This document shows, in pieces, positions 29,297 through 52,934 of a DNA stretch of 64,000 nt. Each line of letters begins with the position of its first letter. Position 1 is the stretch's first letter. The position numbers were made by a program, and so were the translations under genes. The notes below the pieces were generated by a model. That model saw nothing but the letters and a program-made list of their open reading frames with translations. It was not told the origin of the DNA and did not search any database. The DNA is from Salinibacter grassmerensis (lineage in GTDB: Bacteria; Bacteroidota; Rhodothermia; Rhodothermales; Salinibacteraceae), in NCBI RefSeq assembly GCF_947077765.1, contig NZ_CAMTTF010000006.1, positions 62,001 to 126,000 on the forward strand, written 5' to 3'.

Positions 29297-29794
29297 CTAG
29301 CCGTGGAGATCTGGCGACAGCAGTTTCCACATCCCACCTCCGACCACACCGCCGACAAATCCTCCGAGCGCATCTTTCCAAGGCAGTTGCAGCAGGAGCA
29401 GCCCGCCGGCCCCAGTACCCTGCTTCAACGTGGCCACGAGCAGCGCGGCCGTCCCAACAAGCACCCCTGCCGTAAGGCTGGACACCAAAGCAACTCCATG
29501 ACGGGACAGCGAAAACCGAGCGGCCGCCCACCACGTGGTCGCCTGCCAAGCGCTCACCATCGCCCCGCCAAGCACGGCGTGGAGGAAGACCCAGCGAACG
29601 AGCGCGGGGTCTGTGAGAAATCCAGGGCTAAGGTGCTGAATGATAGCGAAGACTCCGCCGCCGAGGACACCGCCCAAGACAGCCCTCAAAACCTGGCGAG
29701 TGGGAGGGGCCGACGCCACGTGCTCCGCCGGGCGGGTCACTGAAGCCATGTCTGTTGGGGCTGTGTCCTCGTTGTTCACGTTTCGGTTGTCCAT
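29297..29794 (-). CDS. Four-helix membrane protein of unknown function
   Basis: 165 aa, ATG start. A polar N-terminal 30 residues precede four hydrophobic Gly-rich segments (AVLGGVLGGGVFAII; WVFLHAVLGGAMVSA; LTAGVLVGTAALLVA; LGGFVGGVVGGGMWKLL). The Gly-x-x-x-Gly spacing suggests tight helix packing. No family is recognised. It lies between the metallopeptidase-barrel gene and the chemotaxis receptor, all minus strand. Confidence 0.6.
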   Translation of the reverse strand: MDNRNVNNEDTAPTDMASVTRPAEHVASAPPTRQVLRAVLGGVLGGGVFAIIQHLSPGFLTDPALVRWVFLHAVLGGAMVSAWQATTWWAAARFSLSRHGVALVSSLTAGVLVGTAALLVATLKQGTGAGGLLLLQLPWKDALGGFVGGVVGGGMWKLLSPDLHG

Positions 29795-29934
29795 GACAGA
29801 ATAGGGTTTGCAAAGCGTGGAAGAGAGTCGGAGGATTCTCGTGTGCTGTCTCCGAACGCCGGCCCCCTCTTCGTAGCACGAGTGCTTTTGAGACAGCCAC
29901 CCGCCCGGTCGAGCACTGTCAACTTATCAGGCCT

Positions 29935-32900
29935 TCACTCGAGGTGAGGAGCCCACCGGGGTTCGCCGTGAGCATCGATGCGGTAGGAGACGCCGAACTC
30001 CAGGGCCAGGCTCATGCCGCCGAACGGGCGCAATCGCAGTCCCAGCCCGGCCCCGACCGAGGCGCGCCGCTCGCCGAGCGTCGGGCCCACGCCGCCCCCG
30101 ACTCGGTACTGCGCCTGCCCAAGCCCATATCCGTAGAGGGCGTCGACGGCCACCGGTAGCATTACCGACCCGGTATCCATGCACCAGAGCGGTTGGGTGA
30201 CCTTCGCGCCGAGGCGAAGGTAGTTGCCGGATCCTGGAAGAGCACCGGCGAGGTCTCGGTAGCCGCGAGGCGCGAACGACTGGACGTCGAAGAACGACCG
30301 GCGGCTCTGCGTGAGGAACGATGCGCTCGTGCGCAGCCCTACATTGTGCCCCGAGAGCAGGGGCCAGAACACGTCGACCCGCTGCCGGAAATACCGGCTG
30401 GGGGTGGTGCCCGTGGGAGTAAGCACGTCCGTCTCGGCGCTCGCGTTTAACCGGACGCCGGTGTTCGGCACCAGGTCGCGAATGTTCTTCTGGACGCGGT
30501 ACTTAAACGTCAGCTCGGAGCTTATATTGGCTCTGCCCGTGAAGCCTCCCTCCGCCTCGCCGCTCGCCGTGATGGGACGGGACTGGCGGTACCCGCCCTC
30601 CAGGCGTGCCGTTAGGCTCGTTGTATATACGTTCTTCTCAAACAAGAACCGCTGGCCCACCCCGAGGCCCAAGCCTCGGAGCTCGAATGCCTCTAGACGC
30701 GAGGCGCCTTTGCCCGTCTCTCGCACGACTTCCACCGGACCGTTGAAGGCCGTAAGCGACGGGGTGCCAGGCAGGAGACCGGTCTCGACGGAGAAGTCGC
30801 CCCATAGCCGATCCGCCTGGTAGAACCCCTGGGCGTTGTAGGCCCATCGCCCGAGCGGGTCGGTGCCGGACACATTCAGCCCCGCTCCAACGCCCAGGTT
30901 CTCACCGTCGAGAGAGGTGCCGAGCAGGTCACCGATGCCTCGTAGAACAGGCGCGGCCGATCGTGGGAAGAGGTGACGCCAGCCCTCATACGGCCGCGAC
31001 TGCTCGCGCAGAGAGGCCGCGTCGGCACCAGAACGCGACCGTTCCGCCGTGACGCCGACCGCGCCCGACGCGTTCTCCTTGTCTTGTGCCAGGGTCACGG
31101 CCGGCCCAGCCGAGGCCATCAGGACGTCTCCCTGCGGAGCCCAGGCGCGCTGGGGTTCGGCGACGGGCCGCGGCGATTCCGGCTGGAAGGGAATCGTGGC
31201 GAGTTCGAAGCGCTCGTGCTGGTAGCGCGCGAAGGCCACCTGCTCCTTGTCGGGCGAGAGGGCTGGCTCCAGCGCGCCGTAGCGCACGGTCGTCAGGCAC
31301 CGAACGTCCCCGTCGCGGCGGTCCAAAGCGTAGATGTTTGCAATGCCCGAGGGGTCGGCCGCAAAGAGCAGGTAGCGCCCCTCCGGCCCCCAGCTCACGT
31401 CGTAGATGGTGCCCTCCTCAAACCGAAGCCACGGCTCGAGCGTCGAGGTAGACGGGTCGAAGCGGTAGAGTCCCTGCTTCCCACCGGCATTGGCGAGCAC
31501 CGCAACCGTGTCGCCACAGGGAGAGGGGGCGACCTGCTTATAGCGGAGGCCCGGGCGGTGGGCCTGTGGGATTGCGCCCTCTTCGCCCAAGGTCACCAGC
31601 TCGCTAAACGAGCCGTCCCGCCGGGCCGCCCACACCGGCCCGCCTGGCGCCTTGGCCGGGGTAAATACGCCGCCGGTCTCTGACACGAGCCGGGCCTCCC
31701 CAGTCCGGAGATGCAGGCGATGCGTCTTCGGTGTCGTGGCCCTACGAACAAGCAGGTCCGGGTGCTGGCGCGCGAAGTAGAGGGCCGTTGTGTCCGGCCC
31801 CAGCGCGTAGGTGTATCCGGACGTGACGGCCTGGTGGCTAACCGCGTGTCGCTCGCCGCTGTGGGCATCGATCCGGTAGAAGCCCGGCTGCGTGGCGTAG
31901 CCGGAGGCGTAGGCCACAAGGGTCGAGTCGCTGGTCCAGTAGGGACGGCGGACGTGCAGCCCCTCGGTGCCGACAAGGACCGCAGGCTCGGTGATCCCGT
32001 GCTCGGCCGCCTGCCGAAGTGAATCGAGGCGCCGCCGCTCTTCCTGCTGCTCGTCCTCGAGAAACGAGTCGCTAAGCTGGGCGGGCGTCTGGCCGGTCCC
32101 CATCCAGAGCGCCATCCCAAAGCCCAAAAACGGGAGGCGGTGATTCCACCGGGCCGCGCGCCGGAAGAAGCCCGTGTCCCCGCGCTCTTCGGCCATGTGC
32201 TCGATCAGCTGCCCGCCGCCGAGATAGTGCCGACGCAAGGGACGCTCGTAGAGCCCAGAATACATCACCTCTCCAACGCTCCAGGGATCATCCGAACCAA
32301 GCGCGGCGCGGTACTTCATCGTCTGAAGCGGGGCATTGAGCCGCCCGGCCCCAGGCTTCAGCTGGCTCTCGCGGTAGACGGCGATGCCCTCTGCCCACCC
32401 GCTTGGCTGAAAGTTATGGAGCCCCCGGGAGAGATCCTCCGAGAATAGGCCCGCCAGTCCGCCAAGGCCAATGCCGGAGTCAATCTCGAAGTGCATCGCG
32501 TGGGTCAACTCGTGGGGCGCGACCGTCTGCGCCCAGGAGTCATACTTGGCCCCAAACGAGAACGTGGGGTGAGCCGTGAAGAGGTGTGACCGGAAGTTGA
32601 TCGGAGTCACGAAGCCGTTGGCGCGGCCGGAGGTCGGGTCGACCACGACGGGAAGTTCAAAGCCCTCCGTGCCGGTTCCCACGATGGAACGGGTGCCCTG
32701 GAAGCTGCGCTGGAGCGCGCCCTGGAAGAGGGCTGTCGTCGTATCGGCCCCGGCCGGGTAGATCATCTCGAAGCGGCTCGTTTCCGCAAACCGGTAGTCG
32801 GCCTGCGGGCGGTACCGGGCGTCGTAGCTGACCTGCGCCTGAGCAGTCGGTGCCACGAGCGTGAGAACGCCGGCCAGCAGTGTCGTCAGGACCAGCGCCC

Positions 32901-32970
32901 AGAGGAACGCGCGATCGAACAGTGTGGGGATTGATGGGCGTTGGCAACGCAATCCGGTGAAAAGAGGCAC
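29935..32970 (-). CDS. Metallopeptidase-beta-propeller-outer membrane barrel protein
   Basis: 1011 aa from a GTG; the signal peptide ends near TAQAQ (about 46). Residues about 50-280 form a peptidase-MA-like gluzincin: zinc motif HELTH in VAPHELTHAMHFE and the third ligand in GWAEGIAVY. Residues about 330-650 contain TolB/WD40-like strands (RRPYWTSDSTLVAYAS, PEGRYLLFAADPSGIANIY, SPDKEQVAFARY). The last about 330 residues show alternating aromatic strands with Gly-Leu-Arg repeats of a beta-barrel (ERRASVGAGLGLRLRPFG). It would thus place a protease and propeller at the outer membrane. The substrate is unknown. Confidence 0.75.
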   Translation of the reverse strand: MPLFTGLRCQRPSIPTLFDRAFLWALVLTTLLAGVLTLVAPTAQAQVSYDARYRPQADYRFAETSRFEMIYPAGADTTTALFQGALQRSFQGTRSIVGTGTEGFELPVVVDPTSGRANGFVTPINFRSHLFTAHPTFSFGAKYDSWAQTVAPHELTHAMHFEIDSGIGLGGLAGLFSEDLSRGLHNFQPSGWAEGIAVYRESQLKPGAGRLNAPLQTMKYRAALGSDDPWSVGEVMYSGLYERPLRRHYLGGGQLIEHMAEERGDTGFFRRAARWNHRLPFLGFGMALWMGTGQTPAQLSDSFLEDEQQEERRRLDSLRQAAEHGITEPAVLVGTEGLHVRRPYWTSDSTLVAYASGYATQPGFYRIDAHSGERHAVSHQAVTSGYTYALGPDTTALYFARQHPDLLVRRATTPKTHRLHLRTGEARLVSETGGVFTPAKAPGGPVWAARRDGSFSELVTLGEEGAIPQAHRPGLRYKQVAPSPCGDTVAVLANAGGKQGLYRFDPSTSTLEPWLRFEEGTIYDVSWGPEGRYLLFAADPSGIANIYALDRRDGDVRCLTTVRYGALEPALSPDKEQVAFARYQHERFELATIPFQPESPRPVAEPQRAWAPQGDVLMASAGPAVTLAQDKENASGAVGVTAERSRSGADAASLREQSRPYEGWRHLFPRSAAPVLRGIGDLLGTSLDGENLGVGAGLNVSGTDPLGRWAYNAQGFYQADRLWGDFSVETGLLPGTPSLTAFNGPVEVVRETGKGASRLEAFELRGLGLGVGQRFLFEKNVYTTSLTARLEGGYRQSRPITASGEAEGGFTGRANISSELTFKYRVQKNIRDLVPNTGVRLNASAETDVLTPTGTTPSRYFRQRVDVFWPLLSGHNVGLRTSASFLTQSRRSFFDVQSFAPRGYRDLAGALPGSGNYLRLGAKVTQPLWCMDTGSVMLPVAVDALYGYGLGQAQYRVGGGVGPTLGERRASVGAGLGLRLRPFGGMSLALEFGVSYRIDAHGEPRWAPHLE

Positions 32971-33061: not shown

Positions 33062-33898
33062 TTAGTCGGTGTCGGCCAGGCGGAGGCTCACGCCGAACGT
33101 CGGCTGTAGGAAGGTCGTCCGCGAGCGACGAATGTCCATCTCGCTGCGGTCGAGCTGACCGTTGCCGTTTTGGTCGTTTAGCGCTCCCTCGGTGAGATAC
33201 TCCGCCTCCTGGCCCAGCAGGTACTGCACCCCAAAATGCAGGTCGACCCTGCGCAGTGTCTTGGACGGATTGTCCTGCCGATAGACCTGGATGTCGACGC
33301 CTGCCCCGACCCCGCCGCTGAGGGCAAAGTCATCAAAGTTGGTAGAGCTGGCAACCTCGTCCCCGAGATCACCGCCAACGTCGTCCTCGTCGATGCGGGT
33401 GCGGGTGAACAGGTACTTGAAGCCGGCCAGGGCCTCGGCGTAGGGCCGAAAGCGGCCCGTCCGAGGCTGAAGGCGAGCCGTCAGGTGCGTCTCCAGCACG
33501 TTGTTGCTAGTCGATACCTCCACCGGCACGCGGGGGCCGACCGTCGAGCTAAATGGCACTGACTCTTCCGTGTGGCCGTAGCCGAAAAATCCGAGGTCGA
33601 GGCCAAGCAGGACGGGGCTTCGGTTGATCCACTCGGCAAGGGAGAGCCGGATGCCACCTCCGGTGCCGACGTTGTTGCGGAGGCCGCCAACCGGAACGCC
33701 GCCGATAAGCCCTCCGCTGAACTGACCGGAAATGGCTGGCGCGTCAGACGTGTCGGCCGGACTCTGGGCGGTAAACTTGTCTTGACCCATGGCGGGCGAG
33801 GTAGTCAGCGTGGCGGCCCCCGCCAGCAGGAGGACGGAGACGAAAAGGGCCCTCACCGTAGAGAACCGAGACTGGGAGAAGGAAGCGACCGAGAACAT
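33062..33898 (-). CDS. Outer-membrane beta-barrel protein
   Basis: 278 aa. The ATG at 33898 opens a signal peptide ending SPAMGQ; the long upstream extension of the frame to 34237 is low-complexity and rejected. The mature part has amphipathic strands with Gly-Gly starts (GGLIGGVPVGGLRNNVGTGG, ALSGGVGAGVDIQVYR) typical of eight-stranded barrels. Near the C-terminus, NDQNGNGQLDRSEMD is a Ca-binding-like Asp/Asn loop. Function unknown; it is 91 bp upstream of the metallopeptidase-barrel gene on the same strand, perhaps co-transcribed. Confidence 0.7.
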   Translation of the reverse strand: MFSVASFSQSRFSTVRALFVSVLLLAGAATLTTSPAMGQDKFTAQSPADTSDAPAISGQFSGGLIGGVPVGGLRNNVGTGGGIRLSLAEWINRSPVLLGLDLGFFGYGHTEESVPFSSTVGPRVPVEVSTSNNVLETHLTARLQPRTGRFRPYAEALAGFKYLFTRTRIDEDDVGGDLGDEVASSTNFDDFALSGGVGAGVDIQVYRQDNPSKTLRRVDLHFGVQYLLGQEAEYLTEGALNDQNGNGQLDRSEMDIRRSRTTFLQPTFGVSLRLADTD

Positions 33899-34467
33899 GA
33901 CGGCAAAGATTTGTTTTGCTTGGGCGGAATACACTGAAGAGCCTGTCGGCGGGAGCGTGGCGTCTCCGGCGCAGGCCCGAGTGCCGAACGTTGCGGGGGG
34001 TTGTATTGAACGTCGGAAGGGGGGTTTGGGCTGTTCGATTGGCGTAGAATGTCGTTTGTGAACGTTCACGTCGCTAGACGGGCGTAGTGAGGATGCAGGT
34101 GTCCACCGCAGTGCCGGGGGTACAGGGAGGATCGTTCCAGATTTTCCCGGCCCAGCGGAGCACCTGCGCAGTGGGGAAGGAGATGCGTCACCGGGGGAAT
34201 GCATCGCCGTTTGGAGAAGACTGGCCTTGAGGTCCAACCCGTCATTGAGCCCAGCGGCGGCGCACGCTCATCGAGCTATGTTCGCGCTCATCGGACGCCA
34301 CTTCCGTCTCTCCACGCGTCTTGGTACACTGCATCCACAGCGATACACTGCATCCACGACGATAGGACATTCACGACGAGGAAACGGCCTCGCCTGCGCC
34401 CGGCGCCCTCTTCCGCCTACGGGGGGGCGCCGGTTCGCGAGTCTTTCGAACCGAGCCTCGACGATCG
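33899..34467. other. Divergent intergenic region
   Basis: 569 bp between the divergent barrel gene and the double kinase gene; should hold both promoters. No small gene is supported. Confidence 0.45.
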
Positions 34468-36939
34468 ATGAATCGCACACGTACCTACTGGCTGTGTCAG
34501 GTCGCTGGATGGTCAGTCCTTGGAATTGCCTTGGGGATTCATCCAGAGAACTGGGCCCCCGGTGAGATTCAGACAACCCTCCTTTCGTGGCTCTTGGGAA
34601 CTGCCCTCGGCATCGGCCTCACTCATGCTTTCCGGGCGTACGCGAAACGGCACGGTTGGACACGCCTTCCTCTGAAGCAGCTCGTTCCGCGGGGCGTGAC
34701 CGCCGCCGTCGTCATTGGGGGACTCTTTACCAGCTTCAAGCTCCTTTTCGTGGCCCTCGGCCCGCTGGGGAGAGTTGCGCACAACCGAGCAGAGCCCTCA
34801 CTCGCTGAGGGATCAATTGGAAACGTGCTTGTGGTAGGGGCCTGGATCGCAATCTATTTTGGAGTGCATGCGGCCTGGAACTACCGGCAGGCCGAGGTCG
34901 ACCGGTGGAAGCTGCAGGCCCGGGCCGAGGCGGCCCGGCTCGACGCCCTCAAGCTGCAGCTTAATCCACACTTCTTCTTCAACAGCCTCGCGAGCGTTCG
35001 CTCCCTCATCAGCGAATCCCCTCCCCGGGCCAAGGAGGTAGTGGCGCGCCTGGCCCGTCTGCTCCGAAAAACGCTGCGGGCAAGCGAGGAGGGAACCGTT
35101 CCGCTTCGAGAAGAACTCTCGACGACTAAGACCTACCTGCAGCTCGAAAAGGTACGCTTCGAGGACCGCTTGGAGTGGACTATCGACGCCTCTGAGGCGG
35201 CCCAAAGCCGCTCGGTACCGTTCATGCTGGTGCAGACCCTCGCCGAAAACGCCGTTAAGCACGGCATTGGGCAGCGCCGGGGCGGCGGCACCATCCGCGT
35301 GGAAGCAATCTTGGATGACGCTTCCTCTGAATCACCGGAGGACGCGCTGCGCCTGCGCGTTGCAAACCCGGGCCAACTGGAGGAAGGCGCGGGATCCACT
35401 CGGAGAAACAGCATGGGACTGGACAATGCACGCGAGCGATTGCGCCTGCTGTACGGAGCCAACGCCTCGCTAACTTTGGAGCAGAGCAGTCCGGAGACGG
35501 TAACTGCGACGGCTCGACTTCCGCCCTCCTCGGAAGCCTTTGCAGAGGGCTCCGGAGAGGCAGAACCGATGCGGCACGCCCCTCTGCCTGGGGAAGAGCA
35601 GCCACAGGACGCGAGGCGTTCAAACGGAACGCCCCAAACTGGAGCCGATGTGTCTTCGCTGGAACCTACCACGGAGCGTCCCTCTGCACCTCCGCGGGAG
35701 CGGGCGAAGAGCGGCGGCCTGACCGACGCCGACGACGAGAACGTGACTCGCCTACTGGTGGGCTCCCCCCGCTACTGGGTCTGCCAGGCAGGAGGCTGGG
35801 GAGCACTCCTGATAGGCGCAGTATTATACGCAGGACTCGGACAGAATACAGGCTGGAAGACGCTTTTGGAGACGGCACTTGGAACAGGAGTCCTTGTTGC
35901 GCCGGGGGTCGGGCTTACTCACGCCTTCCGGATGTACGTAAAATGGCAGAACTGGTCGACGCTTCCCCCGCGACGACTCCTCCCTCGGGCCATAGCCTCC
36001 GCCGTGCTTTTGGGAAGCACGTATGTCCTCGTTACCTCTCCGCTCGCGCTGGACCCAGCGGATTTGCCGACCGCGTGGGCCCCTTGGCTGTGGGCTGTCC
36101 TGGATGAGATGCTTCCCGCAGCACTCGGCTTTTCGATCTTCATGGGCATCTGGATAGCCATATACTTCGGCGTGCAGGCCGCCCGGAAGTATCAACAGGC
36201 TGAGATCGACCGGTGGAAGCTGCAGGCCCGGGCCGAGACGGCTCGCCTCGACGCCCTCAAGCTGCAGCTCAACCCGCATTTTTTCTTCAACTGCCTCGCG
36301 AGCGTACGGGCGCTCGTCTCCGAAGAGCCCGGCCGCGCAAAAAAGATGGTCGAGCGGCTGGCCCGTCTGCTGCGCAAGACGCTGCAGGCGAGTGACCAAA
36401 AGACCGTGTCGCTTGAGGAAGAGATCTCGATCACCCGGACCTACCTGGAGCTCGAGAAGATGCGTTTCGAAGACCGACTCGGCTGGACCATCGACGTGGG
36501 GGAGGCGGCCCTGCAGCGCCAAGTTCCGTACATGCTGGTGCAAACCCTCGTCGAGAACGCCGTCAAGCACGGCATCGGGCAGCACCGGGCGGGGGGAACC
36601 ATTCGAGTCGAAGCAGACGCCGAGAGCCGGGCGTCCATCGAGGGCGAAGAGTCCCCGCTTCGTCTGCGGGTCACCAACCCAGGGGAACTCGGCGAGGAGG
36701 CCGGTGCAGAGCGCGGAAGCGGCACCGGCCTGGAGAATGCCCGCGAGCGACTGCAGCTTCTCTTCGGCGAGGAGGCCTCGCTGAGGCTTGCCCAAATCAA
36801 GCCGGAGACGGTCGCGGCCATCGCCCGGATTCCACGCCCGTCGGCCCTCGACGACCGGCTCGCCAGGGACGGGGCGGCATCGTCCGGATCCACGCCTGTC
36901 CTCCGCGACACAGTCCCCACCGGGGGCGGCGGTCCGTAG
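34468..36939 (+). CDS. Double LytS-type histidine kinase (two kinase units in one chain)
   Basis: 823 aa. Unit 1 (about 1-350) and unit 2 (about 425-810) each have a YW-x-CQ-x-GW start, membrane helices, the His_kinase signature with the phosphorylated His (LQLNPHFFFNSLAS, His168; LQLNPHFFFNCLAS, His604), an N-box with ENAVKHGIGQ, and a G-box (GLDNARERL; GLENARERL). A Pro/Ser/Glu-rich linker of about 70 residues joins them. The frame is unbroken. DNA of the two units is still close around 34909-34972 and 36214-36276, so duplication is recent or maintained. The response regulator gene follows at 83 bp. Confidence 0.9.
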   Translation: MNRTRTYWLCQVAGWSVLGIALGIHPENWAPGEIQTTLLSWLLGTALGIGLTHAFRAYAKRHGWTRLPLKQLVPRGVTAAVVIGGLFTSFKLLFVALGPLGRVAHNRAEPSLAEGSIGNVLVVGAWIAIYFGVHAAWNYRQAEVDRWKLQARAEAARLDALKLQLNPHFFFNSLASVRSLISESPPRAKEVVARLARLLRKTLRASEEGTVPLREELSTTKTYLQLEKVRFEDRLEWTIDASEAAQSRSVPFMLVQTLAENAVKHGIGQRRGGGTIRVEAILDDASSESPEDALRLRVANPGQLEEGAGSTRRNSMGLDNARERLRLLYGANASLTLEQSSPETVTATARLPPSSEAFAEGSGEAEPMRHAPLPGEEQPQDARRSNGTPQTGADVSSLEPTTERPSAPPRERAKSGGLTDADDENVTRLLVGSPRYWVCQAGGWGALLIGAVLYAGLGQNTGWKTLLETALGTGVLVAPGVGLTHAFRMYVKWQNWSTLPPRRLLPRAIASAVLLGSTYVLVTSPLALDPADLPTAWAPWLWAVLDEMLPAALGFSIFMGIWIAIYFGVQAARKYQQAEIDRWKLQARAETARLDALKLQLNPHFFFNCLASVRALVSEEPGRAKKMVERLARLLRKTLQASDQKTVSLEEEISITRTYLELEKMRFEDRLGWTIDVGEAALQRQVPYMLVQTLVENAVKHGIGQHRAGGTIRVEADAESRASIEGEESPLRLRVTNPGELGEEAGAERGSGTGLENARERLQLLFGEEASLRLAQIKPETVAAIARIPRPSALDDRLARDGAASSGSTPVLRDTVPTGGGGP

Positions 36940-37022: not shown

Positions 37023-37784
37023 ATGCCTACGCTCGACACCCTCATTGTCGACGACGAACGCCTCGTGCGCAGCGAACTCCGCCGCATGCTTGAAGAGATC
37101 AATTCCGCCGAGGTCGTCGGGGAGGCCGCCGACGCCACCGAAGCCGAGGCGGCCGTTGAGGAACTCGATCCGGATCTGCTCCTGCTCGACGTGCAGATGC
37201 CGGGGGACAGCGGGTTCGACCTCCTCGAACGTTTGAGTGACGTGCCGCACATTGTTTTCGTGACCGCCTACGACCAGTACGCGATCCGCGCCTTTGAGGT
37301 CAACGCGCTGGACTACCTCGTGAAGCCCGTTGAGAAAGAGCGCCTCGCCGACGCCCTTGAGACCGTTCAGAAGCAGGCCGCCCTGTCGGACGAGGCTGCA
37401 GGGCCGGTGCCCCAGCCCGGCACCGACGAGAGTGAGGAGCCTGACACACTCACCGCCGAAGATCAAGTGTTCGTGAAGGATGGGCGCCGCTGCTGGTTTG
37501 TCCGCCTGGGCGAAGTGCACCTGTTCGAGGCCGCCGGCAACTACACGCAGCTTTATTTCGGCGACGGAGAGCCCTTGATCCACCGCTCGCTCAATTACCT
37601 TGAGGAGCGTCTCGACCCAGACCAGTACTTTCGGGCCAGCCGCCAGCACATCCTCAACCTCGACTGGGTCCAAGCCATGAACAGCCGCCCGAATGGCAAG
37701 CTAGTGGCCCACCTTGCCGGTGACACTGACGTGGAGCTCTCCCACCGGCGCTCGCGGACGTTTCGAGATGAGATGAGCCTGTAG
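37023..37784 (+). CDS. LytTR-family response regulator
   Basis: 253 aa. A receiver domain (1-120) has the acidic pair in IVDDERL, the phospho-acceptor Asp in LLLLDVQMPGDSG and the Lys in DYLVKPVEK. An acidic linker leads to a LytTR DNA-binding domain (about 150-250; YTQLYFGDGEPLIHRSLNYL, FRASRQHILNL). It is the partner of the double LytS kinase just upstream, on the same strand and likely the same mRNA. It binds DNA as a regulator of unknown genes; LytTR systems often control envelope or transport functions. Confidence 0.95.
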   Translation: MPTLDTLIVDDERLVRSELRRMLEEINSAEVVGEAADATEAEAAVEELDPDLLLLDVQMPGDSGFDLLERLSDVPHIVFVTAYDQYAIRAFEVNALDYLVKPVEKERLADALETVQKQAALSDEAAGPVPQPGTDESEEPDTLTAEDQVFVKDGRRCWFVRLGEVHLFEAAGNYTQLYFGDGEPLIHRSLNYLEERLDPDQYFRASRQHILNLDWVQAMNSRPNGKLVAHLAGDTDVELSHRRSRTFRDEMSL

Positions 37785-42614: not shown

Positions 42615-43661
42615 ATGGCAGACGGAAAGGATAGAGCACTTGAAATGGCAGTCGATGAGATCGAACGGGAGCATGGAGAGGGAGCCATCATGACCCTCGA
42701 CGAGGACCCCCAGGACATCGAAGCCATCTCAACCGGCTCGCTTGCGGTCGATGACGCCTTGGGCATTGGGGGCGTCCCGCGCGGCCGCATCATTGAGATC
42801 TTCGGGCCAGAATCTTCGGGCAAAACAACGCTTGCGTCCCACATCGTGGCGGAGGCCCAGAAAGCGGGCGGTGCTGCGGCGTTTATCGACGCAGAGCATG
42901 CATTTGACCCCAGCTACGCAGAAGACTTGGGGATCAACGTTGACGAACTACTGATCTCTCAGCCCAACACAGGAGAGGAGGCGCTCAGCATCGTTGACAC
43001 CCTTGTCCGAAGCGGGGCCCTGGACGTGCTTGTTGTTGATTCGGTGTCGGCACTAGTGCCGCAGGCCGAACTGGAGGGAGACATGGGGGACACCCATGTA
43101 GGGCTACAGGCTCGCCTGATGAGCCAGGCCCTTCGGAAGCTTGCGGGGAAGATCAACCAGACGAAGACATCGCTGATCTTTATCAACCAGATCCGGATGA
43201 AGATCGGGGTTCAGTTCGGAAATCCGGAGACAACCTCCGGTGGGCGAGCTCTGAAGTTTTATTCTTCGGTTCGAATGGACATCCGCCGGATTGGAGCAGT
43301 CAAGGATGGGAAGGACGTTGTCGGAAACAAGACCCGAGTCCGGGTAAAGAAAAACAAGGTGGCGCCCCCCTTTAAGGACGCCGAATTCGATCTGATCTAT
43401 GGGGAAGGGATTTCCAAGCTGGGTGAAATAGTGCAGATCGGCGTCGATGCGGGAATTCTGGAGAAGCGGGGGTCCTGGTACTCCTACAAAGGGGAGACCA
43501 TTGCGCAGGGCCGCTCCAACACAAAAGAGTGGCTTAGTGAGAACCCTGAGGAGCGAGAAGAGATCGAGCGGAAGGTCAAAGCCGAGCTCGGAATCATTGA
43601 GCTGGAGGAAGACCCTGAGGCCGACGAGGATGGCTCCGGTGAAGACAGCGACGAGGACTAA
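42615..43661 (+). CDS. recA: RecA recombinase
   Basis: 348 aa, the usual length. Walker [10 protein letters not shown] (about 66-74), Walker [13 protein letters not shown], and the L2/ATP-sensing segment [19 protein letters not shown] are intact. The C-terminus ([18 protein letters not shown]) is strongly acidic. Its role is homologous pairing, LexA cleavage and repair. It stands alone: no recX follows, and the flanks are gene relics and a recombinase, which is unusual for a core gene and may mark the edge of an island. Confidence 0.97.
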
Positions 43662-44857: not shown

Positions 44858-46063
44858 TCAGAGCCCAATATCTTCGGCCGGATTGTCCTGGAAGGTTCCC
44901 GCCTCTTCCACATACTGGTTGAATGTCTCCCACGAGGCGTGGCCGGAGTGCTCCTTGACGCGACGCTCGGGCTTGCCGGCGCGGATCGCCTGCGTGATAA
45001 AGCCCGCCCGAAGGGAGTGGGCGGAGTATGACTCTGGGTCCAGCCCCGCGCTCTCGGCGTGTCGTTTTAAGACAGTCGAGACGTACTGCGCGGTCATTGC
45101 GCTCTCCCCGATCGATTCGCCCCGATAGAAGCGGCGGAAAATATCCCCCTCAAAGTCGCCTTGGGCGTTCCGCTCTGCGGCTTGAAGCCACTGCCGGAGG
45201 GCGGTGACGGGGCAGGTCTTTTTGCTCGAGCCGTAGGGTAGGCCCTTGACAAGGCCCTCCGCTTCTTGATCGCTCTTCGACTTCCGAATGTGCACATTTA
45301 CGCCCTCGCCTTCGATGAACTGAATGTCTTCCACGCGGAGCGCTACCAGCTCGCTTCTCCGGAGCGCCCCGGTCCAGCCGACCAAAAGCAATGCTCGGTC
45401 GCGCAGGGCGGTCAGCGTGAGGCGCCCAGTGGGGCCGCCGTCGGAGCTGGAGTATCGCGGCAGGTGCTCAATAATAGACCTTAGGTCCTCCACCATAAGC
45501 GGCGGCGCGCCATCTTGCTGGCGGGTCTTCTCCCGGACGATGCCTTTCCAGATCTTGCGGAGCGGCCCCTCGGCCACCGAGGCCGGCGACTCGTGGCCTT
45601 CCTCTTTGTGAAGGGACGCGATGGCCGCAAGCCGGCGCTCCAGCGTCGCGAGGCTGAGCTCATCGGCCCGCGCCCCGAGGTAGAGGCCGATCGTCTTCGG
45701 GGTGGCCGGGAGCCACTCGCGCTCGTATTGTGTGCACCAGTGGCGAAAATCCTCCAGGTCCGCCGCGTAGGCCCGGATGGTGTTTTCCGCCTGGGCCTGT
45801 GCGGCAAAGTCCTCCAACCGGCCCAGGCTTTCTTGAAGCTCGCGCAGGCGCTCCGGGTCTTCCAGTGCCTTGGAGGCTTCGCCCGTGTCGGCGCTCCCAG
45901 AGCCCTTGTCCGGGCCATCAGGATCGGAGGCATTCTGCCTAACCTCAGAGAGTGGAGGGGAAGCCAGTTCGCCTGACCCGTCAGTCTGTGTCTCCTCCGA
46001 GCCATTTTCGCTGGAAGATCCGTTTCCGCCGGAAGGAGTGCTCTTTTCGTCTTTGCTGTTCAT
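44858..46063 (-). CDS. Tyrosine recombinase/integrase
   Basis: 401 aa. A Ser/Glu/Asp-rich disordered front of about 75 residues precedes a SAM-like core-binding domain (about 80-180; NTIRAYAADLEDFRHWC) and the catalytic domain. Catalytic residues: Arg in TGALRRSELVALR, Lys near IRKSKSDQ, His-x2-Arg in AHSLRAGF, the next His in GHASWETFNQ, and Tyr in NQYVEEAG. It performs site-specific strand exchange by family. No attachment site or partner is visible. Upstream and downstream are toxin-antitoxin relics, consistent with a mobile or formerly mobile segment. Confidence 0.92.
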   Translation of the reverse strand: MNSKDEKSTPSGGNGSSSENGSEETQTDGSGELASPPLSEVRQNASDPDGPDKGSGSADTGEASKALEDPERLRELQESLGRLEDFAAQAQAENTIRAYAADLEDFRHWCTQYEREWLPATPKTIGLYLGARADELSLATLERRLAAIASLHKEEGHESPASVAEGPLRKIWKGIVREKTRQQDGAPPLMVEDLRSIIEHLPRYSSSDGGPTGRLTLTALRDRALLLVGWTGALRRSELVALRVEDIQFIEGEGVNVHIRKSKSDQEAEGLVKGLPYGSSKKTCPVTALRQWLQAAERNAQGDFEGDIFRRFYRGESIGESAMTAQYVSTVLKRHAESAGLDPESYSAHSLRAGFITQAIRAGKPERRVKEHSGHASWETFNQYVEEAGTFQDNPAEDIGL

Positions 46064-47399: not shown

Positions 47400-48665
47400 C
47401 CATGTCTGATCGGCTCGTGTCTGGGGCCTACTTCCTTCAGGGCCTGCCTCTACCGCTTGTCTTTCCGCTAAAAAAAACTTGCCGCTGCCTATGCCCTCCC
47501 CGGAAAGCCCCGACAGGCAAGACAGCCGACAGGACAACCGACGAGACGACCGGGCGGAAGGAGAGCCCCCGGTGGAGGATGACCCGACGGGAGACGACCC
47601 GGTAGAGGACACCACCGAGGCAATGGTCAGAACGACTCAGTGCCTGAGCTGCGGGCGGCGGTTCGTTGGCGACTACTGCCCGAGTTGCGGCCAGGAAGCT
47701 GGCCCTCCCGATTCGGTCCTCAGGGTGCTCAGCGTCTTCTTCCGCGAGTTGATCGATATCGAGAATGGGTTGTGGCCCACCCTGCGGGCCTTAACCGTTC
47801 GTCCCGGCCCGGCCCTGTCCCGATATCTGAGCGGGGCTCGTCGCCACCTCATGCACCCCGGGCGCTATCTCCTCGCTTCCATCGTCGTGGCTTTCGCTAC
47901 AGAGCAGGCGCTCGTGTGGCTTGGAGTGCAGGAGGCTTACGGCAGGCAGTTTTCCGTGACCTCCTCTGGAGAAACGGCGGGAGAAACGGTAGGAGAGGGC
48001 GCATCGCTGTTGGTTGCAGCGGCAGGGCGTATCTTCGGATCTCAGGCTTACCTCATCGGGAGCGGCCTGCTGCCTACCGGTCTTTTTGCCCTCGCGGCCT
48101 GGCGGCTGTTTCGAGACCGGTTTACGTGGGGAGCGCAGGCCGTATCCTTCTCGGCGTTTTTGGTGGCCCACGCGACGTTTTTGGAAACCGCCGCTACGCT
48201 GCTCTGCGCGCCAGCTGCCGAGTTGAGCGCCCGCCCGGAGGGAGGGCTTCCCCTCAAGGTTTCGCTGCTTATCACCGCCGTCTACTTCACGGTAGCCACC
48301 GCCAGGGCGTTTGGCGGGGGATGGAAGGGCGCGGCTAAGGGGCTTTTCGCGCTCGGCTGGGCGGCCTTCGAGCAGGGGCTTGCCGTGGTGATCGCTGTGT
48401 ACGCCAGCTGGTTTCTGTACGCCCGTCTCGTGGGAGAGCTGCCCCCACCAGGGGCCTTCAGCTATTCTGGAGGCGGCTTGTCGTTTTCGCTAGGGCTTCC
48501 TTCTCTGATTGGCGCCTGCCTGATTCCGTTTGTTCTCCACGCGGGAGTGGAAGCGTACTACCGCCTGCGGTAGCCTGCCCACGCTGGCGTAGCCGCCGAA
48601 CGGCGTTCGACCCGCAGAGAGTGCGGCCTGCGAAGGCATCGGGGTTCGCCACGAGCGGATCATCG
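47400..48665 (+). repeat. Left arm of a 1.26-kb diverged inverted duplication
   Basis: Pairs with 51768-53030 in inverted orientation. Similarity starts in the leader before the DUF3667 start codon and runs about 90 bp past the stop, including the shared block GCGGTAGCCTGCCCACGC after the coding region. Confidence 0.75.
47491..48573 (+). CDS. DUF3667 family zinc-ribbon membrane protein (copy 1)
   Basis: 360 aa from the ATG at 47491; a TTG at 47479 also lies in frame, but the second copy starts at the matching ATG. A polar, Gln/Asp/Arg-rich front (about 1-45) precedes the zinc ribbon CLSCGRRFVGDYCPSCGQ (about 50-67), a conserved block (FFRELIDIENGLWPTLRALT and RYLSGARRHLMHPGRYLL) and about five membrane helices. 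The family is common in Bacteroidota and has no known function. The inverted copy lies at 51843-52934. Confidence 0.8.
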   Translation: MPSPESPDRQDSRQDNRRDDRAEGEPPVEDDPTGDDPVEDTTEAMVRTTQCLSCGRRFVGDYCPSCGQEAGPPDSVLRVLSVFFRELIDIENGLWPTLRALTVRPGPALSRYLSGARRHLMHPGRYLLASIVVAFATEQALVWLGVQEAYGRQFSVTSSGETAGETVGEGASLLVAAAGRIFGSQAYLIGSGLLPTGLFALAAWRLFRDRFTWGAQAVSFSAFLVAHATFLETAATLLCAPAAELSARPEGGLPLKVSLLITAVYFTVATARAFGGGWKGAAKGLFALGWAAFEQGLAVVIAVYASWFLYARLVGELPPPGAFSYSGGGLSFSLGLPSLIGACLIPFVLHAGVEAYYRLR

Positions 48666-51842: not shown

Positions 51843-52934
51843 CTACCGCAGGCGGTAATACGCCTCCACTCCCGCATGCAGGAGAAGAGGCACCGAAAAG
51901 ATCCCAGCAAAGATAAGCAAAATCCAGCGCGGGACTCCTTCGGGGCTGGAGATGTGGTATGCGCCGGGGTAGGCGGTCAGAAGCCAGTAAGCAGTGCCTG
52001 CGGTAACAACCATCACAATCGCAGCGAACTCTGCCCACGCCCAGGCCCCGCTAGGCGCTCCTTTCGCTGCGGGCTTCCAGCCCGGCCCAAAACACCGCCA
52101 GCAGGCAATTCCGATATATCCGGTCACAAGCGCGACGGCAGCCCCGAAGGGAAGCTCAGCGGAGGGGAGACCTGAGAGGGATCCCGTCCACGCAAGAGCC
52201 AGACCCGTTCCTTCCGCCAGGAAAAGCGTATGACCTGTCAGAAAACTTCCGACTGCCAGCGCCCCGGCCCCTCCATTGGAGCGGTCTCGAAAGAAAGTCC
52301 AGAGGCCAGCCGCGAGAGGCACGGCGATGAGCAGAAACGGGAGGAAAGGGACCTGTTCTACCGCAGAGCCGAAATACGCCACGGATGCGTCGAACGCATT
52401 CCTCTTCCCATCGGCTGCCCGCATGTAGGGATCAACCACTGGGGGTGGCAGAGCGCCGACCCATCGGCTAAGCTGATCGGCTCCAACAGTTACGACGACT
52501 GCGGCAAGCAGATAACGCCCCGGGCTCACCAGTTCCTTCCGGACGCCGCTCAGGTATTTGTGGAGGGTTTTTCCTGGGCAAAGGCTCAGCCCGATGAACG
52601 TCGGCCAGAAGCCATTCTCCACGTCGACCAGCTCCCGCAGGAAGCCCCCGGCCACGCCGGTGACCGTGACGGACAGGCCCGCCTCCTGGCCGCAACTTGG
52701 GCAGTAGTCCCCGACGAACCGCCGCCCGCAGTTCGGGCACTCAGTCGCACGGACCACTGCCTCAGAGGTAGACTCTTTGGAGGTAGATCCCTCAGAGACA
52801 GATCCCTCAGAGACAGATTCTTCAGAGCTGGCCGCCTGGGAAGCGACCTCCGTCGAGGGCTCTCCTTCCGCCCGGTCGTCTTGCCGGTTGCCCTGTCGGT
52901 CGTCTTGCCTGTCGGGACTTTCCGGTGAGGACAT
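51843..52934 (-). CDS. DUF3667 family zinc-ribbon membrane protein (copy 2)
   Basis: 363 aa. Zinc ribbon CPNCGRRFVGDYCPSCGQ is nearly identical to copy 1, as is the front (SPESPDRQ ... RAEGEP). Between them is a Ser/Glu repeat (SVSEGSVSEGSTSKESTSE), five 15-bp units at 52752-52826 that copy 1 lacks. The membrane part keeps FLRELVDVENGFWP and KYLSGVRKELVSPGRYLLAA but has diverged elsewhere. Function unknown. Confidence 0.8.
   Translation of the reverse strand: MSSPESPDRQDDRQGNRQDDRAEGEPSTEVASQAASSEESVSEGSVSEGSTSKESTSEAVVRATECPNCGRRFVGDYCPSCGQEAGLSVTVTGVAGGFLRELVDVENGFWPTFIGLSLCPGKTLHKYLSGVRKELVSPGRYLLAAVVVTVGADQLSRWVGALPPPVVDPYMRAADGKRNAFDASVAYFGSAVEQVPFLPFLLIAVPLAAGLWTFFRDRSNGGAGALAVGSFLTGHTLFLAEGTGLALAWTGSLSGLPSAELPFGAAVALVTGYIGIACWRCFGPGWKPAAKGAPSGAWAWAEFAAIVMVVTAGTAYWLLTAYPGAYHISSPEGVPRWILLIFAGIFSVPLLLHAGVEAYYRLR
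52752..52826 (-). repeat. 15-bp tandem repeat A (in DUF3667 copy 2)
   Basis: Five units of 15 bp, for example TCTGAGGGATCTGTC on the minus strand. Same period and related unit as repeats C, D, E and F to the right. Confidence 0.8.

What the first reader, a model, noticed from the sequence alone, without database searches (positions are those of the whole stretch)
34468..36939. Two complete LytS kinases fused in one polypeptide
One unbroken frame holds two full units, each with membrane helices, phosphorylated His (168 and 604), N-box and G-box, joined by a disordered linker. LytS kinases normally work as dimers, so this may be a built-in dimer in which one unit phosphorylates the other, or two sensors feeding one LytTR regulator. 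The DNA of the two units is still similar in the His region, pointing to recent duplication or gene conversion.
Basis: partly seen in the sequence, partly recalled or inferred. Interest (0 to 1): 0.75.

Follow-up and report, generated by a model that had tools for sequence, protein, structure and literature searches.

The report
Two sensor kinases in one protein
A salt-loving bacterium makes one membrane protein holding two complete copies of a signal-sensing kinase; some relatives keep this rare arrangement together with a gene regulator and an outer-membrane protein gene that the regulator probably controls.

Summary
One open frame (34468-36939, 823 aa) holds two PF06580 kinase units, each with 4 predicted membrane helices, QLNPHFFFN (H168, H604), an N-box and a G-box, joined by an 83-aa linker. 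It is not an assembly error: two same-genus genomes carry the whole fusion at 74% identity, and a genome of another genus reads through the linker into unit 2 before its contig ends. The duplication is old: N units group with N, C with C, no gene conversion is detected since the split from G002/G003, and dN/dS is about 0.2 in both halves. 'LytS' fits the kinase core only; the 5TMR-LYT sensor is not detected. New here: a conserved module of divergent outer-membrane barrel gene, double kinase and LytTR regulator, with 20-bp-period direct repeats (candidate LytTR operators) on both sides of the divergent promoter in four genomes; an Asn-to-Ala change 7 residues after the His in all seven tandem units seen; and a probable plasmid location in the window species. 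Most likely it works as a built-in asymmetric kinase pair feeding one regulator; the intramolecular step is inferred. New variant of a known kind.

The parts
34468..36939 (+). double sensor histidine kinase gene, 823 aa
34468..35523 (+). unit 1: 4 predicted TM helices, signalling helix, His168, N-box, G-box (RNSMGL)
   Evidence: AF2 mean pLDDT 90
35524..35772 (+). 83-aa linker (residues 353-435), rich in A/P/E/S, poorly conserved
35773..36939 (+). unit 2: 4 predicted TM helices, His604, N-box, G-box (GSGTGL)
37023..37784 (+). LytTR response regulator (Response_reg + LytTR), 84-85% identical in G002/G003, where it also follows the fused kinase
33062..33898 (-). divergent outer-membrane beta-barrel gene with signal-peptide-like start (the longer ORF runs to 34237); weak OMP_b-brl match below its cut-off; 68% identical to the G013 copy over 346 aa of the longer ORFs
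34264..34293 (+). candidate LytTR operator, kinase side: ACGCTCATCG-N10-GCGCTCATCG, period 20
34036..34085 (-). candidate LytTR operator, barrel-gene side: three half-sites at period 20, the middle one weak in the window, G002 and G003
29300..29923 (-). small ORF (no Pfam match) whose relatives follow the barrel gene in G002, G003 and G013; in the window a 3-kb gene (29935-32970) lies between

Best explanation
An ancestral 4-TM PF06580 kinase gene was duplicated and joined in frame, giving a double kinase found in two genera. Shown by sequence: the fusion, its age relative to the G000/G002/G003 split, purifying selection on both halves, the conserved module, and a conserved 20-bp-period repeat in the divergent promoter. 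Inferred: the two halves pair inside one chain, the 83-aa cytosolic linker keeping the two dimerisation helices close, so that one molecule is an asymmetric ready-made kinase dimer whose two diverged membrane sensors (36% identical) are read together. It phosphorylates the adjacent LytTR regulator, which binds the period-20 repeats on both sides of the divergent promoter, controlling its own operon and the outer-membrane barrel gene.
For: Fusion in full in 3 genomes plus a fourth cut by its contig edge. Tree: N units together 99/97, C units together 100/100, N+C together 100/98, single kinases outside (one tree). Whole-unit dN/dS between G000 and G002 is 0.106/0.516 (N) and 0.141/0.713 (C). 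All 13 invariant columns of an 80-sequence alignment, both window units included, are by definition kept in both. The N unit folds as a complete kinase (pLDDT 90; best PDB matches the GanS kinase domain 6swk/6swj, TM-score by target 0.62 and 0.65). The sensors are 36% identical and the DHp segments 77%. Even TM number and positive-inside loops put both kinases in the cytosol. Barrel gene and kinase are kept in G002, G003 and G013, and the regulator in G002 and G003 (in G013 that side is off the contig), while no other ORF of window 20000-52000 matched those stretches apart from the small ORF 29300-29923 and frames overlapping the module. The kinase-side repeat is at the matching place in 4 of 4 genomes; in the own genome it is the best of 18 hits at up to 3 mismatches (control pattern 8), and a 3-mismatch hit lies 166 nt upstream of the single-unit paralogue, on the opposite strand. 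A tested LytTR operator (YpdB) is two GGCATTTCAT repeats at 21 bp (passages of PMC4847170).
Against: No result shows intramolecular pairing: the full-length model was useless (pLDDT 42.8) and the tools gave no coordinates or contact maps. Among 25 pairs of single kinases whose sensors are under 40% identical, 17 have DHp segments more alike (79.6-94.6%) than the two halves (77.4%) and 8, all with G023's kinase, less (63.4-66.7%): this could mean separate pairing or relaxed constraint. The N unit of this species has lost a G2-box Gly. HATPase_c is not listed for the N half alone at E 0.1 and scores below the Pfam cut-off for the C half alone. Operators: the consensus was read from the same sequences that were then scored, so the shuffle counts are optimistic; in G002 a pair at period 45 scores higher (19) than the one at 20 (18); on the barrel side the best pair in the window, G002 and G003 is at period 40, because the middle half-site matches only 6 of 10 there; only 3 of 12 single-kinase loci reach 16/20, and L014, a near relative of L002, does not.
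Confidence: 0.5

Rival explanations
1. Two sensors, one regulator: the chains dimerise with each other (N with N, C with C), giving a four-kinase complex in which each unit reads its own signal and both feed the same LytTR regulator.
For: Sensors strongly diverged (36%) while the kinase cores stay similar (DHp 77%, ATP domain 64%); one regulator gene beside the kinase; the invariant residues kept in both halves.
Against: The fusion would then bring little that two genes could not; the DHp helices are still similar enough that they might cross-pair. Both points are inference.
Confidence: 0.3
2. One unit is becoming a pseudokinase: the N unit mainly senses or restrains unit 2.
For: G2 box RNSMGL in the window's N unit, GSGTGL in G002 and G003; its G1-to-end segment against G002 has dN/dS 0.250/0.496, against 0.120/0.590 for the C unit.
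Against: N units of G002, G003 and G013 keep the Gly; 13 other units of the 80 lack it too; all invariant residues are present.
Confidence: 0.12
3. The chain is cut or re-initiated, so the cell really holds separate kinases; an internal start just before unit 2 makes a free C unit.
For: At the junction a GTG codon in the window (35743-35745) aligns with ATG in G002 and G003; the linker is poorly conserved.
Against: The same place is GTT in G013; ribosome-binding evidence was not sought; the in-frame link is kept in four genomes.
Confidence: 0.08
4. Assembly or sequencing artefact (collapsed or fused tandem genes).
For: None found.
Against: Other genomes carry the same fusion at 74% identity without in-frame stops, dN/dS about 0.2. 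The only directly adjacent pair of kinase frames among the fetched loci (L019, G006) is of two kinases far apart on the tree and from the fused units.
Confidence: 0.01

Closest known systems
PF06580 (His_kinase) sensor kinases with a short membrane N-terminus, e.g. the single-unit paralogue L002 in the same genome
   Same: Same kinase core, 'YWxCQxxGW' start, adjacent LytTR regulator
   Different: One unit per polypeptide; Asn kept 7 residues after His; barrel gene not matched in the 6 single-kinase stretches compared
LytS/BtsS-type kinases with LytTR regulators
   Same: LytS-type name and LytTR partner; BtsS dimerises in a two-hybrid test (PMC10653868, passages)
   Different: 5TMR-LYT sensor not detected here; two kinases per chain
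Non-hybrid kinases with two transmitters
   Same: Two transmitters and no receiver; a 2010 census found 2 of 15,704 non-hybrid kinases (PMC3018481, passages)
   Different: The identity of those two was not seen, so it is unknown whether either is of this family
Dual histidine kinases of Basidiomycota (Tco2) and myxobacterial TRTR/TRTTRT proteins
   Same: Two or more kinase modules in one chain (PMC4965123; PMC4603909; passages)
   Different: The myxobacterial ones carry receiver domains; the fungal ones are treated with hybrid kinases; no LytTR partner in the passages seen
YpdB LytTR operator
   Same: Two direct repeats of 10 bp at 21-bp period (PMC4847170, passages)
   Different: Here 20-bp period, another sequence, two or three half-sites; binding untested

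Membership tests
PF06580 His_kinase sensor kinases | His_kinase domain above curated cut-off | tested here: met
   85.6 bits (N half) and 90.6 bits (C half), cut-off 25.2
PF06580 His_kinase sensor kinases | ATP-binding domain with N-box and G-boxes | tested here: met
   Invariant E260 N261 K264 H265 G266 G317 R324 in both units; HATPase_c 32.4 bits for the whole protein, cut-off 26.4, but 18.1 for the C half alone and not listed for the N half alone; N unit folds as a kinase; C unit not folded on its own
LytS-type kinases (5TMR-LYT + His_kinase) | 5TMR-LYT input domain | tested here: not met
   No 5TMR-LYT match at E 0.1; 4 KD helices per unit. Definition from PMC10653868, passages
LytS-type kinases (5TMR-LYT + His_kinase) | LytTR response regulator encoded alongside | tested here: met
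   37023-37784, Response_reg 89.2 bits, LytTR 58.4 bits
Non-hybrid double-transmitter kinase | Two transmitters, no receiver, in one polypeptide | tested here: met
   two His_kinase stretches, no Response_reg; kept in orthologues
Histidine kinase dimers | Dimerisation before autophosphorylation | not testable with these tools
   AF2 of the full chain pLDDT 42.8; no contact output
LytTR operator | Direct repeat of about 10-bp half-sites spaced about 20-22 bp before a regulated promoter (spacing range recalled; 21 bp for YpdB) | tested here: inconclusive
   Period-20 repeat in 4 of 4 genomes on the kinase side; on the barrel side three half-sites in 4 of 4, the middle one weak in 3; binding not testable

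The most novel reading that the evidence does not exclude
A natural single-chain asymmetric histidine-kinase dimer: two kinase protomers encoded in one polypeptide with separately evolving membrane sensors, a lineage-specific Asn-to-Ala change two helical turns after each phospho-His, and a plasmid-mobile regulon (double kinase, LytTR regulator, outer-membrane barrel) held together by a shared 20-bp-period operator.
Probability: 0.4. Interest if true: 0.7.

Novelty: new variant of a known kind. Interest (0 to 1): 0.52.

Why it matters
Histidine kinases are normally homodimers, so cis/trans phosphorylation and the role of asymmetry are hard to study without mixed or engineered dimers (general knowledge). 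A natural chain with two distinguishable protomers lets each His, ATP site and sensor be mutated separately in one molecule. It also shows that a non-hybrid double kinase, nearly absent from a 2010 census, can be stably kept and probably moved with its regulator and candidate target.

Tried and rejected
Recent gene conversion: rejected by site patterns. The lower N-C dS in the DHp segment (0.71-0.86, against 1.48-2.64 in TM) is similar within and between genomes, so it is old or due to constraint. The 19-nt tandem repeat at 34325-34362 as operator: dropped, its second copy is absent from the other three genomes. Operator hit at C3:408419 (L098): inside a frame that reads as an ABC ATPase (by eye), treated as chance. 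Full-length AF2: pLDDT 42.8, not used. Search for other double kinases: none seen in the order (114 genomes, at most 8 candidates each scored), class (244, at most 4, E 1e-70) or phylum sample (395, at most 2, E 1e-45), nor among 159 kinase frames in 194 partly overlapping loci (six double rows, which are three genomes). These searches rank by similarity and report above a threshold, so a double PF06580 protein of another sort could be missed; a Pfam-wide census was not run. NCBIfam gave no family for the kinase. Tblastn against PLSDB plasmids: 278 records with matches, all below 60% identity; the 10 best listed span about 1 kb each, that is one unit. Literature on natural single-chain kinase dimers or double LytS-like kinases: none seen in the listings (20 of 31 listed; 4; 15 of 485; 0; 4); only open-licence PMC papers are held and matching is literal. 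PMC13322254 was looked at in passages and not used. The script timed out and that had too strict a filter; both were redone. The tree was built once, with long-branch warnings for rows outside the group of interest; no clade test was run.

Full report
WHAT IS THERE. The window holds one ATG-started frame of 823 codons at 34468-36939 (+). Pfam His_kinase (PF06580) matches each half (85.6 and 90.6 bits, cut-off 25.2), and the halves align at 56% identity over 359 residues. Each half has four hydrophobic peaks, with K/R-rich loops where the cytosol is expected, a long helix leading into QLNPHFFFN (H168, H604), ENAVKHG and a GL-N-ARERL box. An 83-residue linker joins them. A LytTR response regulator follows at 37023-37784.

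IS IT REAL AND HOW OLD. The fusion recurs in full at 74% identity in G002 and G003; G003's contig has the same length as a named record, Salinivenus lutea DBO, which encodes a double frame of the same length. In G013, of another genus in the family, the frame runs through unit 1 and the linker into about 70 residues of unit 2 and then off the contig. In all, 3 of 13 genus genomes have the whole fusion and 1 of the 14 other family genomes has this cut copy; three of the 13 are only 62-83% complete. Of this kinase clade, G001, G004 and G005 (99% complete) carry only a single-unit kinase, while G000, G002 and G003 carry both the fusion and a single-unit kinase with its own LytTR regulator. On a 41-row tree the N units form one group (99/97, with G013), the C units another (100/100), and both together a third (100/98), with single kinases outside. 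One duplication therefore preceded these lineages. With G002, informative sites give 190 for orthology, 11 for within-genome similarity and 14 for the control pattern; with G003 174, 11 and 14. No gene conversion since that split is detected. dN/dS over the whole unit is about 0.2 in both halves, so both are kept by selection. The 'recent duplication or gene conversion' reading is rejected.

ARE BOTH KINASES COMPLETE. In an alignment of 80 units, both window units included, 13 columns are invariant, among them H168, N172, E260, N261, K264, H265, G266 and G317. The N unit, modelled with this alignment, has mean pLDDT 90 and pTM 0.75, and its best solved matches are the GanS kinase domain (6swk, 6swj; TM-score by target 0.62 and 0.65). 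The C unit was not modelled on its own. One caution: the first Gly of the G2 box is Ser in the window's N unit but kept in its orthologues; it is also missing in 13 other units of the 80. One unexpected mark: seven residues after the His, 78 of 80 units have Asn, and the two with Ala are the window's own. Among 126 distinct units with an N-box, 115 have Asn, 4 His, 1 Thr and 6 Ala; 5 of the 6 Ala belong to the double kinase (G000 N and C, G002 N and C, G013 N), and the sixth is a single kinase, L159. The two G003 units show the same Ala in the sequence printed. The change lies two helical turns after the phospho-His. Its role is unknown; an effect on the dimer core or on phosphatase activity is inference.

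THE MODULE. Around the fusion, G002, G003 and G013 share with the window a divergent outer-membrane barrel gene (68-74% identity) and a small ORF after it, and G002 and G003 share the LytTR regulator (83-85%; in G013 that side is off the contig). Apart from frames overlapping these, no other ORF of window 20000-52000 (150 aa or more, E 1e-15) matched the stretches compared. The barrel call rests on a sub-threshold Pfam match (19.2 and 23.0 bits, cut-off 28.7) and a signal-peptide-like start (by eye). The divergent promoter contains ACGCTCATCG-N10-GCGCTCATCG at 34264-34293 reading toward the kinase, with matching sites at the same place in 4 of 4 genomes. Reading toward the barrel gene, three half-sites stand at 20-bp steps at 34036-34085; they score 27 of 30 in G013 and 23 of 30 in the window, G002 and G003, where the middle one is weak and the best pair is therefore at 40 bp. 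In the whole own genome the kinase-side site is the best of 18 hits at up to 3 mismatches (control pattern 8 hits), and one 3-mismatch hit lies 166 nt upstream of the single-unit paralogue on the opposite strand. In 3 of 12 single-kinase loci a weaker form scores 16 or more of 20 (L002, L016, L017, which are close relatives), on the strand facing the divergent gene; L014, as close, lacks it. The divergent gene of L002 is an amidase. The shuffles used a consensus read from these same sequences and so overstate significance; the fixed spacing and position across genomes is the better evidence. The LytTR regulator YpdB binds two GGCATTTCAT repeats 21 bp apart (PMC4847170, passages).

WHERE IT LIVES. 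The window's contig C6 (164,605 bases, GC 0.604) carries Rep_3, ParA-like and plasmid-actin-like genes plus an integrase and a second RecA. It is very probably a plasmid, though no exact terminal repeat was found, and its GC is not clearly set apart: 20-kb samples of three other contigs have 0.61-0.66. The G002 and G003 contigs with the module have GC 0.67, and those plasmid genes had no match there (E 1e-20). Transfer between lineages would explain why the module is absent from G001, G004 and G005, whose single kinases are the closest to the window species' own; this is inference.

HOW IT PROBABLY WORKS. Both kinase cores face the cytosol on one chain, held within reach by a probably flexible linker. 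The LytS-type kinase BtsS dimerises in a two-hybrid test (PMC10653868, passages). The simplest use of the fusion is that the two cores pair inside the chain, giving a ready-made asymmetric dimer that reads two diverged sensors (36% identical) and phosphorylates one regulator, which acts on its own operon and the barrel gene. Against this, of 25 pairs of single kinases with sensors under 40% identical, 17 have DHp segments more alike than the two halves (77.4%) and 8, all with G023's kinase, less; the halves may thus form separate homodimers or be under relaxed constraint. The full-length model was too poor to decide. I put the single-chain pair at about one half, and chain-to-chain dimers with two sensors at about 0.3.

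WHAT IS KNOWN. A 2010 census found two transmitters in 2 of 15,704 non-hybrid kinases, against 51 of 4,650 hybrids (PMC3018481, passages). Myxobacteria have TRTR proteins and one TRTTRT protein, the latter described as apparently a tandem duplication and fusion (PMC4603909, passages). Basidiomycete fungi have dual kinases (PMC4965123, passages). My literature searches (capped listings) showed no double LytS-like kinase. It is not a LytS-type kinase in the strict sense, because the 5TMR-LYT sensor is not detected (definition in PMC10653868). I file it as a new variant of PF06580 kinases with LytTR regulators.

Noticed in passing
window 42615-43658 (+): A second RecA (PF00154, 439 bits), 76% identical to the genome's other RecA (C3:46053); the other 12 genus genomes searched have one match each at E 1e-40.
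   Followed up: partly
contig C6 of G000 (loci L197-L202 and the window): Rep_3 initiator (C6:40866), ParA-like protein (C6:37221), actin-like protein (C6:47647) and an integrase (window 44861-46063) make the window's contig a probable plasmid of about 165 kb or more.
   Followed up: partly
L076 / G003:C76:103114-106593 and G000:C6:15217-19721: A second kinase/LytTR pair with an apolipoprotein N-acyltransferase-like gene lies about 2 kb from the module in G003 and is also on the window's contig, 77 kb away, at 69-78% identity.
   Followed up: partly
L019:1387-3869: In G006 two kinases of this superfamily sit next to each other with overlapping stop-to-stop frames; they lie far apart on the tree and far from the fused units.
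   Followed up: partly
window 47491-48570 (+) and 51846-52934 (-): Two DUF3667 proteins with similar starts in opposite orientation, about 3 kb apart.
   Followed up: no
window 29935-32970 (-): A 1011-aa protein with weak TolB-propeller similarity sits between the barrel gene and the small ORF that follows it in relatives; 79-81% matches lie in G004 and G005.
   Followed up: partly
window 35743-35745: A GTG codon near the linker end aligns with ATG in G002/G003 and GTT in G013: a possible internal start or relic of the second gene's start.
   Followed up: partly
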